Shown piece after piece: positions 23,264 to 30,582 of a stretch of 33,411 bases of DNA. Positions within the stretch are counted from its first letter, which is position 1, and each line of letters starts with the position of its first letter. Source of the DNA: Candidatus Altimarinota bacterium (GTDB lineage Bacteria > Patescibacteriota > Gracilibacteria > BD1-5 > UBA2023); assembly GCA_017993345.1 (NCBI GenBank), contig JAGOMW010000001.1:1-33411 (forward strand), in the 5' to 3' direction. A program made the position numbers and the translations under genes. The notes under the pieces were generated by a model. It searched no databases. It saw only the letters and a program-made list of their open reading frames with translations, and was not told where the DNA came from.

Positions 23264-24457
23264 TTATCGAATAGTCTCACCAGGAAGAGTTGTTCCGTTG
23301 CTAGAAATTATTCTACCAGGATATATAATTGTTCCGATACCAAGATGTGCCCCATCTCCGATGATCACTCCGAGTTTTCTATGTCCCGTATCAACCAATT
23401 TATCTTTAATCATTACTCGGATATTTTTTGCATCATGCCGAAGATTCGCCACCATAGAATTTCCACCGATATTTACATCATTTCCAATAATCGAATCCCC
23501 AATATAACTCAGGTGTGGAATAGAAGAATGATCGCCAATGTAAGAATTTTTACATTCTACAGAAAAACCAACCTTAGTACTCTCGCCAATACTTGTGTTT
23601 CATCGAATATAGGCATTTGGACCAATAACCGATCATTTCCCAAAATATACATTTCACTCAATAGAAGTTCCAGACTTAATAATAACCCCTTCTTCAAGAT
23701 AAATATTTCAATTTATAGACACATTTGGTTCTATAATTGCTCATTTATTAAGAGTTTCTGAATAATTTCCGATTATCTCATTATTTGCTTTTAGAAGATC
23801 CCATGGATATCCTATCGTAATCCACTTCCCCTTCGCCTCAACAAGAGCCATACGGTCCTCTTCGATATATTTTTGCATTAGGTCAGTGATCTCAAGTTCT
23901 CCACGAGGAGAAAGCGGGAGAGTATGAAGGAGTGGGAATATCTGATCATCCAGCTTGAATACTCCTATATTCGCCAGATTACCAGAGGAAGGATCAGTCG
24001 GTTTTTCTATAATACCTGTGAGTTTTCCAGTATCGTCCACAGAAAAAATCCCAAAATCCTCGGGACGATCGACTGCCTTTGCTAGGATGCTATATCCAGG
24101 TGTATTTCTCAGTGACAAAATATCCTCACTCGCATAGAGATCATCTCCCGATACAACAAGAAACTCTCCAGAAATCTTTCCATCGAGCGAGAGGATCGCA
24201 GCACCGGTTCCTGATTTTTCATCCATCTGCACGATATAATGAACTGGTTTTCAGTGATAAGTAGTTCCAAAGTATGTGGAAAATTGCTCCTTCTTGTATT
24301 TTACAATAAAAAATATCTCATCGAATTCAGAGATGATCGACTCGATATTGTGTTCGATTAGTGTTTTTCAACAGATCTTCAAGAGGGGCTTTGCTGTGGT
24401 ATCTGTGAGTGGTCTCATCCGAGAACCTTCTCCTGCTGCCATGATGACAAGATGCAT
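23264..24457 (-). CDS. Sugar-1-phosphate nucleotidyltransferase with left-handed beta-helix domain
   Basis: A 397-residue two-domain enzyme from ATG 24457 (MHLVIMAAGEGSRMRPLTDT). The N-terminal Rossmann-like domain has the signature AAGEGSRMRPLTDTTAKPLL, the block SGDDLYASEDIL, the phrase IIEKPTDPSSGNLANIGVF and ELEITDLMQKYI. It would make an NDP-sugar from NTP and sugar-1-phosphate. The C-terminal third is a hexapeptide-repeat left-handed beta-helix (VIIKSGTSIEGNVYFG, VIGPNAYIRGNTSIG, GNDVNIGGN, IIGDGAHLGIGTIIYPG), as in GlmU and archaeal-type bifunctional enzymes, suggesting acyltransfer. UGA codons repeatedly fall at the turn glycines of the repeats. It could supply UDP-GlcNAc, but the sugar is not proven. 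It lies 56 bases after murD. Confidence 0.85.
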
Positions 24458-24513: not shown

Positions 24514-25806
24514 TTAGAGACTTTTCACAGCACTCCGAAATTGTTCTGCACGATCAAGATAATCTCGAAACATCCCGAAACTCGCACAACCAGGAGAAAG
24601 AAGAAGTACATCACCTATGATACATTTTTGATTTGCCTGCATTACAGCATCATTCATGGTTTCTGAGAAGACAAAAGGAGTACTGGCAGAAAGGCATTTC
24701 TTTGATAAAAGATCACGAGTAGCACCTATAAGAACAACAAACTTTACTGTTTCTTTAAGTTTTTGCTCTAGTCAATCAAATGGATCTCCCTTATCAGAAC
24801 CACCAGCAATAAGAACTATCCTTTGTGTAGGAAAAGATCCAAGAGCAGCTAAAAGACTTTGACAACTGGTAGATTTTGAATCTTCAACATAACGAATTCC
24901 ATTTTTTTCAGCAATTAACTCCAAACGATGTGGAAGTCCATGGATATTTTGGAGGTATTTTTTTATTCTTTTTGAGCAGATTTTCATTTCATTCATAACA
25001 AGAGTACAAGAAAGGATATTCATTGCATTATGCATTCCAGAAAAATGAGTTTCCGAAAGTCGATATACTCGACGACCAGAAATAACTATATCCTCACCAT
25101 TGGTCCTATCTTTCAAGTCATTTCACTGAGAGAAAAAACGAGTATTCTTTGGGGGGGATACACTTAATCTCTGTTCTCAGGCAAACTCAAGTATTTGTTT
25201 ATTGAGAAATGATTTTCTTTTTGTATGATAAAAAATATTCATTTTTGCATCTGCATATTCCTGAAGATCCTGATGCCAATTCAGATGGTCTGATTTTAAA
25301 TTTGTAAAAATAGAATAATCAGAAGTATAGTCTTTAATAACGTGAGACATAAAACTGGAAATCTCCACTACAATATATCATTTCCTTTCTTTTTTTTGAA
25401 GAATTTCTAAAACCGTTTTCGAAAATGGAGCATCGAAATTACCAGAAATATAGACACTTTTTTTGACTTTTTGATTCTTCTCGGGTATAGTACTACTATC
25501 GAATTCTTGTTTCAAGAGCTGATACATCATCCAAGAAGTTGTTGATTTCCCATCAGTACCAGTGATCGATACAATTTGAAATCATTCAGGAAGATATTGA
25601 TAAGCGAAATCAAGTTCAGCCACAACCTTCCCTGTTTGGTAAACGGTATGTGTTCATGGAACTCCTGGTGAAGGAATAATGTAATCATATGCCTCATAGG
25701 AAACAAGATTATCAGAATCATCTCGCATATCATAAGCAAGAGAAAGGTAATCGCAGAGGGCTGCAACTGCAGATCCAACTTTATTTTTTCAGTATATAAG
25801 TATCAT
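24514..25806 (-). CDS. murD: UDP-N-acetylmuramoylalanine--D-glutamate ligase
   Basis: Cytosolic ATP-dependent ligase adding D-Glu to UDP-MurNAc-L-Ala; D-Glu comes from MurI, encoded nearby. The 430-residue protein from ATG 25806 (MILIYGKNKVGSAVAALCDYL) has the N-terminal nucleotide-sugar domain (GKNKVGSA, IIPSPGVP), the Mur-ligase P-loop ITGTDGKSTTSW, the block VVEISSFMSHVI, then SIFTNLKSDHLNWHQDLQEYADAKMNIF with the carbamylated-lysine region, and C-terminal blocks LPHRLELIAEKNGIRYVEDSKSTS and VLLLSPGCASFGMFRDYLDRAEQF. The P-loop uses Asp-Gly-Lys-Ser where Asn-Gly-Lys-Thr is usual. Several UGA codons are read as Gly. Its start codon overlaps the divergent start at 25805. Confidence 0.93.
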
Positions 25807-27304
25807 GTTTTTTAGTATAAGAAAAAAATATAAAATACAACCATTCTTTTACGGTGGAAAACTCGGTACTGGAAAGGTATTATCAGAATTTAGTGCAGAT
25901 TTTGAGGGACAAACAAGAGGTTGAGTAGACCTCGTAACCCTACAAAAACAACAGAAAATTAAATGAACGCTCCATGATATCTACCATGTACCTAAGTTTG
26001 AAGATATTTCAGACCTATATGTTTTTTTTAAAGACCTAGAGTGAAAAGACACAAATCTTGAATATAGTGAGTACAAGGCATGAATTATTCGAGATATTTG
26101 TCTCGCATATAGACATGCCATACAATATCTGGAACAAGAAAATTACTACGTACCAAAGCTCTGAAAAAATCCCCAATCACCTGGAGACATCATACAAATA
26201 ATGCATCGTTGAGAAAAAATGCAAAAAGCACAGGATAAAATTGGCTATTGTACTATTCTTAAAGAAGTACTTTGATTTTTTAGAATTATTCGTTGTAAAG
26301 AATTTACAATAGACTATAAGACAGGAAAGATAGATCTTCGTAATAAAGAATTTATAAAGGAGGTGATGGATATATTTTCAAGTAAGGAATTTATATATTC
26401 GAATGAATCAAAACAATTTTCAGAAGATTCCAATACCATGGATGGTGACCTTCTTTTAGAAAATAAAAAATTTCCAATCTATGCAGGATTTGATGTAAAA
26501 ACTGTGTATTCTATGATAGAAAAAATGGATGGTCAAGAAAAGTATAATCTGCCGGAAGCATTTAAAGATATACATAGAATGCGAATAGAGCTCAGAGCTC
26601 CCTGTGAAGCACTTAGAACAGCAAAGCTCTTATTTAATAAGTTTGGGAAAAGTTTAAAAATCGAGAATGTTTGAAACATGGTATCAGAAAATGATTTAAA
26701 GGAGTACATTCAACAGTTTTGTTCTTGAGAAGAAGATAAAAATTTTAGAGAAGAACTTGAAAAAAACCTATCGAATGAAAAAGAGGCAGTTTTTGATGCA
26801 AAAAAAGCATATAGTTCAGATCGTCAAGAGCTCAAACTTTCCAGAAACTCAAAACCACCTATCGAGATTCAAATAGTCCTCGTTAATAATAACAATGAAA
26901 CTGGATGGGCCCATCATGATATCTATAAAATTCGAAGAAAAATTGTAGCGAAAATAAGACGACATGGATGGATAGGAATAAATGGAATAAATACAATCAT
27001 AGATGCAGTAATAGAAAAAAATACGGCCCATAATAATGGGAAATCAACAATTATCTACTCGAAAGAACAGATATATAAACATATTCTCTCAGAAGGATTC
27101 TTAATGCCTATTCGTTGAGCAAGTGAATGAGATATGAATAAAAAAATAAAGATTAATCATTTTTCAACAAAAGAAGTGCTTGAAAAATATAAACATAACT
27201 ATTCAAGCTCAAGTCAGTTATGAAATATTTCTGTTCACCTTGGCAGTCAATGAGTATCATGATTTATACCACTGAGTTGAATTTCCTTTCCATCCAACTC
27301 CTAA
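25805..27304 (+). CDS. Unrecognised 499-residue protein, faint RelA/SpoT-like motifs
   Basis: No family recognised with confidence. The frame from ATG 25805 (MFFSIRKKYKIQPFFYGG) to TAA 27304 holds 15 UGA-as-Gly codons, the highest count for its size here. It is soluble, Lys/Asn/Glu-rich and without a signal peptide. Residues 230-265 contain KTVYSMIEK and FKDIHRMRIEL, and residues 354-375 contain EIQIVLV then WAHHDIYK. This spacing recalls RelA/SpoT nucleotidyltransferases: a KxxxSxxxK element, a DIxxxRI strand with metal-binding Asp (D255), and an ExQI strand with the catalytic Glu (E354) followed by an HHDIYK helix. A charged, probably helical stretch (about 290-345) lies between. This could be a divergent (p)ppGpp synthetase-like fold, but that is a hypothesis. 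It ends 40 bases inside the convergent murI. Confidence 0.6.
25814..25840 (-). promoter_or_regulatory. Promoter of the murD operon, probably leaderless
   Basis: TATACT (minus strand 25819-25814) lies 7 bases before the murD ATG, with TTGTAT (25840-25835) 15 bases further upstream. RNA would start at about the ATG. The promoter lies inside the first codons of the divergent 25805-27304 gene. Confidence 0.5.
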
Positions 27305-29729: not shown

Positions 29730-29866
29730 AAATGAACGAATGAGTAAATAAAGAAGGAAGTGTGCAGGGTGAAAAACAAAACCAAATATTCACTTCAGAC
29801 ACACAATGTATTTATTAAAGAAGAAGGAAGCAGACGAATGCCTTTTTTCCGCTTGAATTTCGGGTG

Positions 29867-29917
29867 ATTATAAAAAAAGTAGAAGATTTTGCAAGAAAAA
29901 AGAAAATAGTATATACT
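29867..29917. promoter_or_regulatory. Divergent secD/HD promoter pair sharing one palindromic -35
   Basis: The self-complementary hexamer TTGCAA (29889-29894) is 17 bases upstream of TATACT (29912-29917) on the plus strand. On the minus strand it is 16 bases upstream of TATAAT (29872-29867). Both are near-ideal spacings. The rest of the 223-base gap 29730-29952 holds the secD leader (T-rich, with a weak GTGAA/TTCAC hairpin) and a 35-base HD leader. Confidence 0.7.
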
Positions 29918-29952
29918 CGCTCTGAATTTATATTCTTCTAATCTCATTTTTC

Positions 29953-30582
29953 ATGATCATCGAACAGGCAAAATCATATGTTTTTGATATTCTTCGCAAA
30001 TGCGAACACTATCAGTATCATAATCCATCTCATACTCAGGGCGTTCTCGAGCGTGCTACCTATATAGGAATGAATGAGGGAATCGGTAGAGAAGATATGG
30101 AAGACCTACAACTTGCCTGCCTTTTTCATGATACAGGATTTACAGAACAATATGAAAAAAATGAATATATCGGTGCAAGGATTGCACGTATGTGGCTCAA
30201 ATGAAAAAATCATCCAGAAAACCGAATCGAAAAAATCGAAGGGATTATTATGGCAACTGTCCTTTTTTCAAAACCAAAAACCCTTCTCGAAGAAATTATC
30301 CAAGATGCAGATCTCGATAACATAGGCACAAAAGAAGAATTCTATTATTCACTCGACTACTTAGAAGAAATACGCAGCGTTGGTCATACAGAAATATCTG
30401 ACTGTGCGTATTGGCAATTTGTATATACCCTCCTTACTCGATTTAAATTCCATACAAAAACTGCAAAAAAAGAAAGGCATCACCAGCAACTTAGAGATAT
30501 TGATCATCTTGAAAAATTTCTCGAAATGCTCTGATGTAGTATTCCAACTGTTGACGGATCAAAAATGCACGCAGTTCAATAA
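29953..30582 (+). CDS. HD-domain phosphohydrolase-like protein
   Basis: A 209-residue cytosolic protein from ATG 29953 (MIIEQAKSYVFDILRKCEHYQYHNPSHTQGVLERA). It has the HD-fold metal ligands in order: H27 in YHNPSHT, H59-D60 in LACLFHDTGF, and Asp in IIQDADLDNIG (D118/D120). This matches small HD-domain hydrolases that act on nucleotides or cyclic nucleotides, but the substrate is unknown. Two UGA codons are read as Gly; the second (EMLGCSIPTVDG) extends the protein by 15 residues to TAA 30582. It has a good promoter and is transcribed away from secD. A hairpin overlapping the groESL CIRCE element follows. Confidence 0.8.

What the first reader, a model, noticed from the sequence alone, without database searches (positions are those of the whole stretch)
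25805..27304. 499-residue unknown protein with RelA/SpoT-like catalytic pattern
KTVYSMIEK, FKDIHRMRIEL, EIQIVLV and WAHHDIYK occur in the order and roughly the spacing of (p)ppGpp synthetase domains, but the flanks are unfamiliar and a helical insert separates the halves. It sits between murD and murI, hinting at a link of alarmone-like nucleotide signalling with wall synthesis. It is the best candidate in the window for something undescribed.
Basis: inference. Interest (0 to 1): 0.55.

Follow-up and report, generated by a model that had tools for sequence, protein, structure and literature searches.

The report
Swappable RelA-like enzyme beside wall genes
This gene of a small-genome bacterium encodes a remote relative of the alarm-nucleotide enzyme RelA, and very different versions of it have been exchanged at one fixed spot between two cell-wall genes, which looks more like a defence or conflict gene than a wall regulator, although its reaction has not been tested.

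Summary
Window 25805-27304 (+) is a 499-residue gene under code 25. Its centre is a divergent RelA/SpoT (RSH) synthetase domain: family profile against canonical Rel gives probability 96.9%, E 1.9e-10 (ten column-shuffled controls 0.4% or less). K232, K240, D255 and E354 are kept in 45 of 45 relatives aligned. PF04607 itself is below cut-off. Canonical Rel is a separate gene in 75 of 77 genomes of the order (not found in this incomplete one).

New here: in the window's family (f1) the gene fills a fixed slot between murD and murI in 15 of 27 genomes (one side shown in 4 more). The occupants belong to deep classes that conflict with the genomes' relationships: sister genomes carry different classes, genus groupings are rejected (p 7e-9 and 7e-84), and the class changes at least five times among 15 loci. 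Close pairs show purifying selection like murD. The catalytic core is shared by all classes; the flanks mostly are not. In family f3 it lies instead behind a tRNA-methyltransferase-like gene (15 of 22).

Most likely a gated RSH-type pyrophosphokinase in a conflict role, like toxSAS/CapRel. A wall link is weaker. Activity and role are inferred.

The parts
25805..27304 (+). the RSH-like gene (called RSHx here), 499 aa, code 25
25805..26416 (+). N-terminal region (about residues 1-204), predicted helical at low confidence; weakly like the N-terminal region of classes B and f3, unlike class C and unlike the HD domain of canonical Rel
26447..26974 (+). RSH-synthetase-like domain (residues 215-390)
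26498..26500 (+). K232, invariant Lys (the K of canonical RxK)
   Evidence: 45 of 45
26522..26524 (+). K240, invariant Lys (SxxxK)
   Evidence: 45 of 45
26567..26569 (+). D255, invariant catalytic-type Asp
   Evidence: 45 of 45
26645..26812 (+). insert between the halves (about residues 281-336; limits approximate)
26864..26866 (+). E354, invariant catalytic-type Glu of ExQ
   Evidence: 45 of 45
26975..27301 (+). C-terminal region (residues 391-499), class-specific
25804..25807 (.). CATG in which the start codons of RSHx (+) and murD (-) overlap
   Evidence: the same overlap read from coordinates in G005 and G011 and G010
24514..25806 (-). murD, head-to-head neighbour, one wall of the slot
   Evidence: TIGR01087 283.5 bits
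27264..27953 (-). murI-like racemase, tail-to-tail neighbour, other wall of the slot
   Evidence: PF01177

Best explanation
RSHx is a second, highly divergent RSH-family enzyme. Shown by comparison: homology of its central domain to the Rel synthetase domain, conservation of the two Lys, the Asp and the Glu of the pyrophosphate-transfer site, variable parts around that core, and occupation of a fixed slot between murD and murI by deep classes that conflict with the genomes' relationships. Inferred: it moves a pyrophosphate from a nucleoside triphosphate to a 3'-OH, but with altered base recognition. In the window protein the position of the strand-1 Arg that binds adenine in CapRel is Asp230, and the G-loop Tyr position is Arg340, so the acceptor is probably not free GDP/GTP bound in the canonical way. 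Inferred and least certain: the enzyme is kept off by its own flanks, is switched on by a class-specific trigger such as a phage or other invader, and then stops growth by modifying nucleotides or tRNA ends, as CapRel and other toxSAS do. Shifting triggers would explain why whole classes are exchanged at one address.
For: Homology; fold (RSH synthetases in 24 of the top 25 rows, Z 3.9-6.3). Catalytic residues 45 of 45. Separate canonical Rel in 75 of 77 genomes. Class exchange: pairwise identities, RSHx tree, AU tests, murD+murI tree with at least 5 class changes among 15 loci. Purifying selection in close pairs, dN/dS 0.06-0.16 in five pairs against murD 0.07-0.17 in four. Shared core with class-specific flanks. 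Patchy presence, 44 of 77 genomes. No small neighbour gene recurs that could be a separate antitoxin. CapRel active-site residues and autoinhibition: PMC9712102, passages.
Against: No defence-gene context; 0 PADLOC families for the window protein; no relative found in phage, plasmid or viral collections. The slot is a housekeeping block kept over a family, unlike usual defence islands. Slow evolution in close pairs is not what a fast arms race would give. No class was shown to be toxic, and no trigger or autoinhibiting element was identified. The window class alone aligns to canonical Rel only weakly (hhalign 28%).
Confidence: 0.45

Rival explanations
1. A wall-linked alarmone synthetase: RSHx makes a (p)ppNpp-like nucleotide that tunes D-glutamate supply (MurI) or its ligation (MurD), and is co-regulated with murD from the overlapping divergent starts.
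For: Abuts both murD and murI in 15 of 27 f1 genomes and lies within about 0.7 kb of murD in 4 of the 8 loci of family f13 examined (G106, G249, G086, G206), in a different arrangement. Purifying selection like murD in close pairs.
Against: murI-murD pairs without RSHx exist (G025, G026, G006, G001, G002). f3 genomes keep RSHx elsewhere (15 of 22 behind a tRNA-methyltransferase-like gene). 33 of 77 genomes of the order gave no RSHx that I count. Class exchange is hard to explain for a fixed regulatory task.
Confidence: 0.22
2. An RNA-directed pyrophosphokinase or nucleotidyltransferase with a housekeeping role (tRNA end control), not a conflict role.
For: In f3 it is directly downstream, same strand, of a TIGR01177/Trm-G10-like methyltransferase in 15 of 22 genomes, and next to a TrhP-like U32 gene in 4. 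FaRel2 pyrophosphorylates tRNA ends (PMC11559606, start of abstract in the listing).
Against: The methyltransferase is in 71 of 77 genomes but RSHx in 44, so the pair is not obligate; in f1 and part of f13 the neighbours are wall genes. Class exchange and patchiness.
Confidence: 0.13
3. A catalytically dead RSH fold used as a nucleotide sensor or scaffold.
For: Asp in place of the strand-1 Arg and Arg in place of the G-loop Tyr in the window protein; strand-2 Arg kept in only 25 of 45.
Against: Both Lys, Asp and Glu invariant in 45 of 45 across very distant classes.
Confidence: 0.12
4. Class mixing is an artefact: chimeric assemblies, or several ancestral copies sorted out by loss, with no exchange.
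For: The relatives are draft assemblies without names, one per species; the G010 bin holds pieces of more than one murD.
Against: RSHx and murD or murI lie on the same contig in every case counted; 5 changes are needed among 15 loci; no genome shows two classes at the slot.
Confidence: 0.08

Closest known systems
Long RSH enzymes Rel/RelA/SpoT (PF04607 synthetase domain)
   Same: Order of motifs RxK..SxxxK..D..GxR..ExQ..E.G..H..Y; homology at probability 96.9% for the family; fold match Z up to 6.3.
   Different: No similarity of the N-terminal region to the HD domain (0.6% or less); no TGS/ACT hit; class-specific flanks; insert before the G-loop; S and H of YxSxH replaced (mostly D/N/E and K).
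Small alarmone synthetases RelP/RelQ
   Same: Synthetase-type domain without hydrolase; fold rows 5ded, 6fgk, 6ex0.
   Different: About twice as long or more, with about 200 residues before and about 110 after the domain; base-binding residues altered.
toxSAS and the fused toxin-antitoxin CapRel
   Same: Synthetase-like core with extra domains in one chain; fold rows 7ztb, 9erv; no separate antitoxin gene seen beside it.
   Different: In CapRel the toxin is N-terminal and the pseudo-ZFD C-terminal (PMC9712102, passages); here the long extra part is N-terminal. Toxicity and triggering unknown; not found on phages.
Allelic restriction-modification loci (hsd of enterobacteria; recalled, no call)
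   Same: Divergent whole-gene classes alternate at one chromosomal locus.
   Different: A different enzyme, and seen here between species, not strains.

Membership tests
RSH superfamily (synthetase domain, PF04607) | PF04607 match over the curated cut-off | tested here: not met
   19.9 bits, cut-off 27; 4 of 11 relatives match PF04607 at E<=1, best E 4.5e-6
RSH superfamily (synthetase domain, PF04607) | profile-profile homology to the Rel synthetase domain | tested here: met
   45-row domain profile: probability 96.9, E 1.9e-10, shuffles 0.4% or less; class A alone only 28%
RSH superfamily (synthetase domain, PF04607) | catalytic Asp and Glu, and the two Lys | tested here: met
   D255, E354, K232, K240 in 45 of 45 aligned rows
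RSH superfamily (synthetase domain, PF04607) | adenine-binding Arg of strand 1 (R79 of CapRel, PMC9712102) | tested here: not met
   Asp230 in the window protein; Arg in 37 of 45 of the family
RSH superfamily (synthetase domain, PF04607) | adenine-binding Arg of strand 2 (R116 of CapRel) | tested here: met
   Arg260 in the window protein; 25 of 45 of the family
RSH superfamily (synthetase domain, PF04607) | G-loop Tyr | tested here: not met
   Arg340 in the window protein by alignment; Tyr or Phe in 31 of 45; the alignment is less sure there
RSH superfamily (synthetase domain, PF04607) | RSH nucleotidyltransferase fold | tested here: inconclusive
   model pLDDT 66, pTM 0.59; Foldseek no hit at E<=0.001; VIA rows 1-23 and 25 are RSH enzymes at Z 3.9-6.3, rmsd mostly about 5, but Z under 8
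RSH superfamily (synthetase domain, PF04607) | pyrophosphate transfer to a nucleotide | not testable with these tools
   needs biochemistry
Long RSH (Rel/RelA/SpoT) | HD hydrolase domain before the synthetase | tested here: not met
   hhalign of each class's N-terminal region against 13 canonical N-terminal halves: 0.1-0.6%
toxSAS / CapRel | toxicity relieved by antitoxin or autoinhibition | not testable with these tools
   needs expression tests
toxSAS / CapRel | adjacent antitoxin gene or fused pseudo-ZFD | tested here: inconclusive
   no recurrent small neighbour seen; the C-terminal region was not compared with the pseudo-ZFD alone
toxSAS / CapRel | match to a defence-system model | tested here: inconclusive
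   0 PADLOC families at E<=1 for the window protein; the library is of 2023

The most novel reading that the evidence does not exclude
A new kind of immune or conflict locus: a chromosomal slot fixed beside a housekeeping gene (between murD and murI in one family, behind a tRNA-methyltransferase-like gene in another) that holds one of several deeply divergent, single-gene, trigger-gated RSH-type pyrophosphokinases, exchanged between lineages as allelic classes, with an acceptor other than GDP/GTP.
Probability: 0.25. Interest if true: 0.75.

Novelty: new variant of a known kind. Interest (0 to 1): 0.55.

Why it matters
If true, small-genome Gracilibacteria-like bacteria carry, beside their ordinary Rel, a second RSH enzyme whose catalytic core is frozen while base recognition, flanking domains and whole classes change at a fixed address. 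That gives a ready comparative set for asking what RSH enzymes can use as acceptor, and whether immune-type RSH genes occupy dedicated chromosomal slots. It also warns against reading a conserved murD-murI neighbourhood as proof of alarmone control of the wall.

Tried and rejected
Chance resemblance: rejected (with shuffled controls). The helical N-terminal half as a decayed HD hydrolase: no support (the first version of that comparison, printed stale values for the canonical HD rows and was redone). Fast drift of one vertically inherited gene as the whole cause of the divergence inside f1: rejected by the conflicting trees and by the slow change in close pairs (dS is near or over 1, so the ratios are rough). 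Against me here: some pairs inside a class are well below murD (G007-G019 35% against 74%, G007-G010 32 against 64, G000-G008 29 against 56, G009-G021 29 against 50), so faster change adds to the exchange. A second RSHx flanking murD on both sides in G010: looked likely, rejected, since the two murD pieces are only 63% alike over 100 nt, so the bin mixes organisms. Exchange breakpoints inside murD or murI: sliding identities showed nothing clear. The nearby HD-domain gene as alarmone hydrolase: it also stands beside murI/secD in G006, in which no RSHx was found, so it belongs to the block. Full-length structure: pLDDT 48, best PDB match E 0.44. Viral collections gave no relative. Literature: no paper found that describes such a protein (listings only); passages of PMC8080830 and PMC11452946 hold no 'ppGpp' or 'stringent'.

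Rows dropped: the 45-row tree and residue counts leave out RSHx of G027 (contig end), G041 (frame broken), G031 (no ORF hit), and G016, G020, G045, G046, G061, G065, G072, G075, G076 (found or fetched later). The 45 were found through profiles built on the same motifs, which favours conservation of those motifs. Three of the 47 matching genomes (G052, G054, G064) were set aside: two overlap canonical Rel, one scores 18 bits.

Full report
Observation. Translated with table 25, window 25805-27304 gives 499 residues with 15 TGA read as Gly. The frame was found intact in the window's own contig, G000:C39. Eleven of the 15 TGA sites are Gly in relative G005 and 11 in G011, several written GGN, which supports both the code and the frame.

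What the core is. Pfam gives PF04607 RelA_SpoT below its cut-off (19.9 against 27 bits, residues 231-376); NCBIfam gives nothing. A profile of 11 relatives finds Rel in the PDB (7oiw, E 7e-4), and one of 29 finds five Rel/RelA sequences among six hits (best E 0.0035). The domain alignment of 45 relatives matches 13 canonical Rel of the phylum at probability 96.9%, E 1.9e-10, while 10 column-shuffled controls stay at or under 0.4%. A model of residues 196-442 (6 sequences, pLDDT 66, pTM 0.59) has no significant Foldseek hit. In the VIA second look, rows 1-23 and 25 of 50 are Rel, RelA, SpoT, small synthetases, CapRel or Tas1 (Z 3.9-6.3, rmsd mostly about 5), with the first unrelated row also at Z 3.9. 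The values are modest, but the list is consistent.

Residues. In 45 of 45 aligned rows K232, K240, D255 and E354 are kept; Gly367 in 42 and Glu365 in 37. Residues that read bases vary. The strand-1 Arg is kept in 37 (Asp in the window protein and its class) and the strand-2 Arg in 25; the G-loop position is Tyr or Phe in 31 (Arg in the window protein). In CapRel the two Arg coordinate adenine and the Tyr is the G-loop Tyr (PMC9712102, passages). So the transfer site looks intact and the specificity altered; the latter is inference.

Not the cell's Rel. PF04607 over its cut-off is found in 75 of 77 genomes of the order; the own genome, 80.65% complete, is one of the two without it. RSHx is a further gene, in 44 of 77 genomes (47 matches at E<=0.001, three set aside), nearly always one copy. 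Outside the order it was seen in the class and once in a contig titled Moraniibacteriota; in 379 genomes drawn from the phylum only a handful of matches extend beyond the span shared with canonical Rel.

The slot. Of 27 genomes of the window's family f1, RSHx abuts both murD and murI in 15 (G000, G003, G004, G005, G007-G013, G019, G021-G023), one side is shown in 4 (G015, G016, G018, G027), one (G024) is near a murI-like piece and a distant murD, two have it elsewhere (G020, G026), and five gave none (G006, G014, G017, G025, G028). The orientation is murD<- ->RSHx-> <-murI. In the window and in G005, G010 and G011 the start codons of murD and RSHx overlap in CATG (coordinates). In G025, G026 and G006 murI and murD are directly adjacent without it; likewise in G001 and G002 of family f2.

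The occupants are exchanged. murD, murI and secD are 43-87% identical among these genomes; RSHx falls into classes with mostly 16-32% between them. Genus g4 (labels of the tool) holds classes A (G011, G008), B (G009) and C (G007, G010); genus g2 holds C (G003) and B (G004). The RSHx tree supports the classes (SH-aLRT: A 100, B 96 with two f3 rows inside, C 100). RSHx rejects G003+G004 as a clade (p 6.6e-9) and g4 as a clade (p 6.8e-84), while murD rejects class A (p 0.006) and class C (p 0.009) as clades. On a murD+murI tree, where G003/G004 (100/100) and G008/G009 (99/97) are sisters, the class must change at least 5 times among 15 loci. In close pairs RSHx is about as constrained as murD: dN/dS 0.06-0.16 (five pairs) against 0.07-0.17 (four pairs). 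More distant pairs inside a class can lie well below murD (for example G007-G019, 35% against 74%), so faster change adds to the exchange. The relatives are draft assemblies without names, one per species, so exchange within a species was not tested.

Modules. The synthetase-like core is shared by all classes (pairwise hhalign 78-99.9%). The N-terminal region is shared by B, f3, f13 and others (90-99%), weakly by A (53-65% with B and f3), not by C (3.2% or less). The C-terminal regions match across classes at 43% at best. None of the N-terminal regions resembles the HD domain of canonical Rel (0.6% or less).

Other addresses. In family f3, RSHx lies directly behind, on the same strand as, a TIGR01177/UPF0020 methyltransferase in 15 of the 22 f3 genomes with RSHx (coordinates). 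The best PDB relatives of that methyltransferase are tRNA guanine-N2 methyltransferases. RSHx is next to a TrhP-like U32 gene in four, and next to a DUF84 NTPase in three genomes, two of f3 and one of f1. In family f13 it lies within about 0.7 kb of murD in 4 of 8 loci, in another arrangement. The murD link is therefore real but not universal.

How it most likely works. Shown: homology, an intact set of transfer-site residues, an extra gene beside Rel, a fixed slot, class exchange, class-specific flanks. Inferred: pyrophosphate transfer with unusual donor or acceptor recognition; gating by the flanks; a conflict role as in toxSAS and CapRel. I put the RSH identity at about 0.9, and the whole statement with the conflict role at 0.45. 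A wall-tuning alarmone synthetase is the main rival (0.22).

Known or new. No described family covers the protein in the libraries searched, and no paper on it was found. It is best filed as a new, divergent branch of the RSH superfamily, not as a Rel, SAS or toxSAS.

Noticed in passing
23264-24457 (-): A GlmU-like protein that scores 442.6 bits against the archaeal-type model TIGR03992 (cut-off 292), above all bacterial GlmU models.
   Followed up: no
29806-30582 (+): An HD-domain protein (PF01966) divergent from a SecD-like gene; the secD-HD pair follows murI in many f1 genomes, also in G006 in which no RSHx was found.
   Followed up: partly
L080:8996-10195, L082, L091, L092, L094, L096, L097, L098, L161-L164: RSHx of family f3 lies directly downstream of a Trm-G10-like methyltransferase; several RSHx clades share this second address.
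   Followed up: partly
L105:5549-9091; L080:6009-8907: In G026 (f1, class C, empty murI-murD junction) and G063 (f3) different RSHx classes stand beside the same DUF84 NTPase and deoxynucleoside kinase genes.
   Followed up: partly
L157:569-2320: In the mixed bin G010 a second, G026-like RSHx is convergent with the 3' end of another murD.
   Followed up: partly
L106:912-3686: In G122 the RSHx frame is 925 residues long with a Nudix-looking N-terminal part (by eye from the translation).
   Followed up: no
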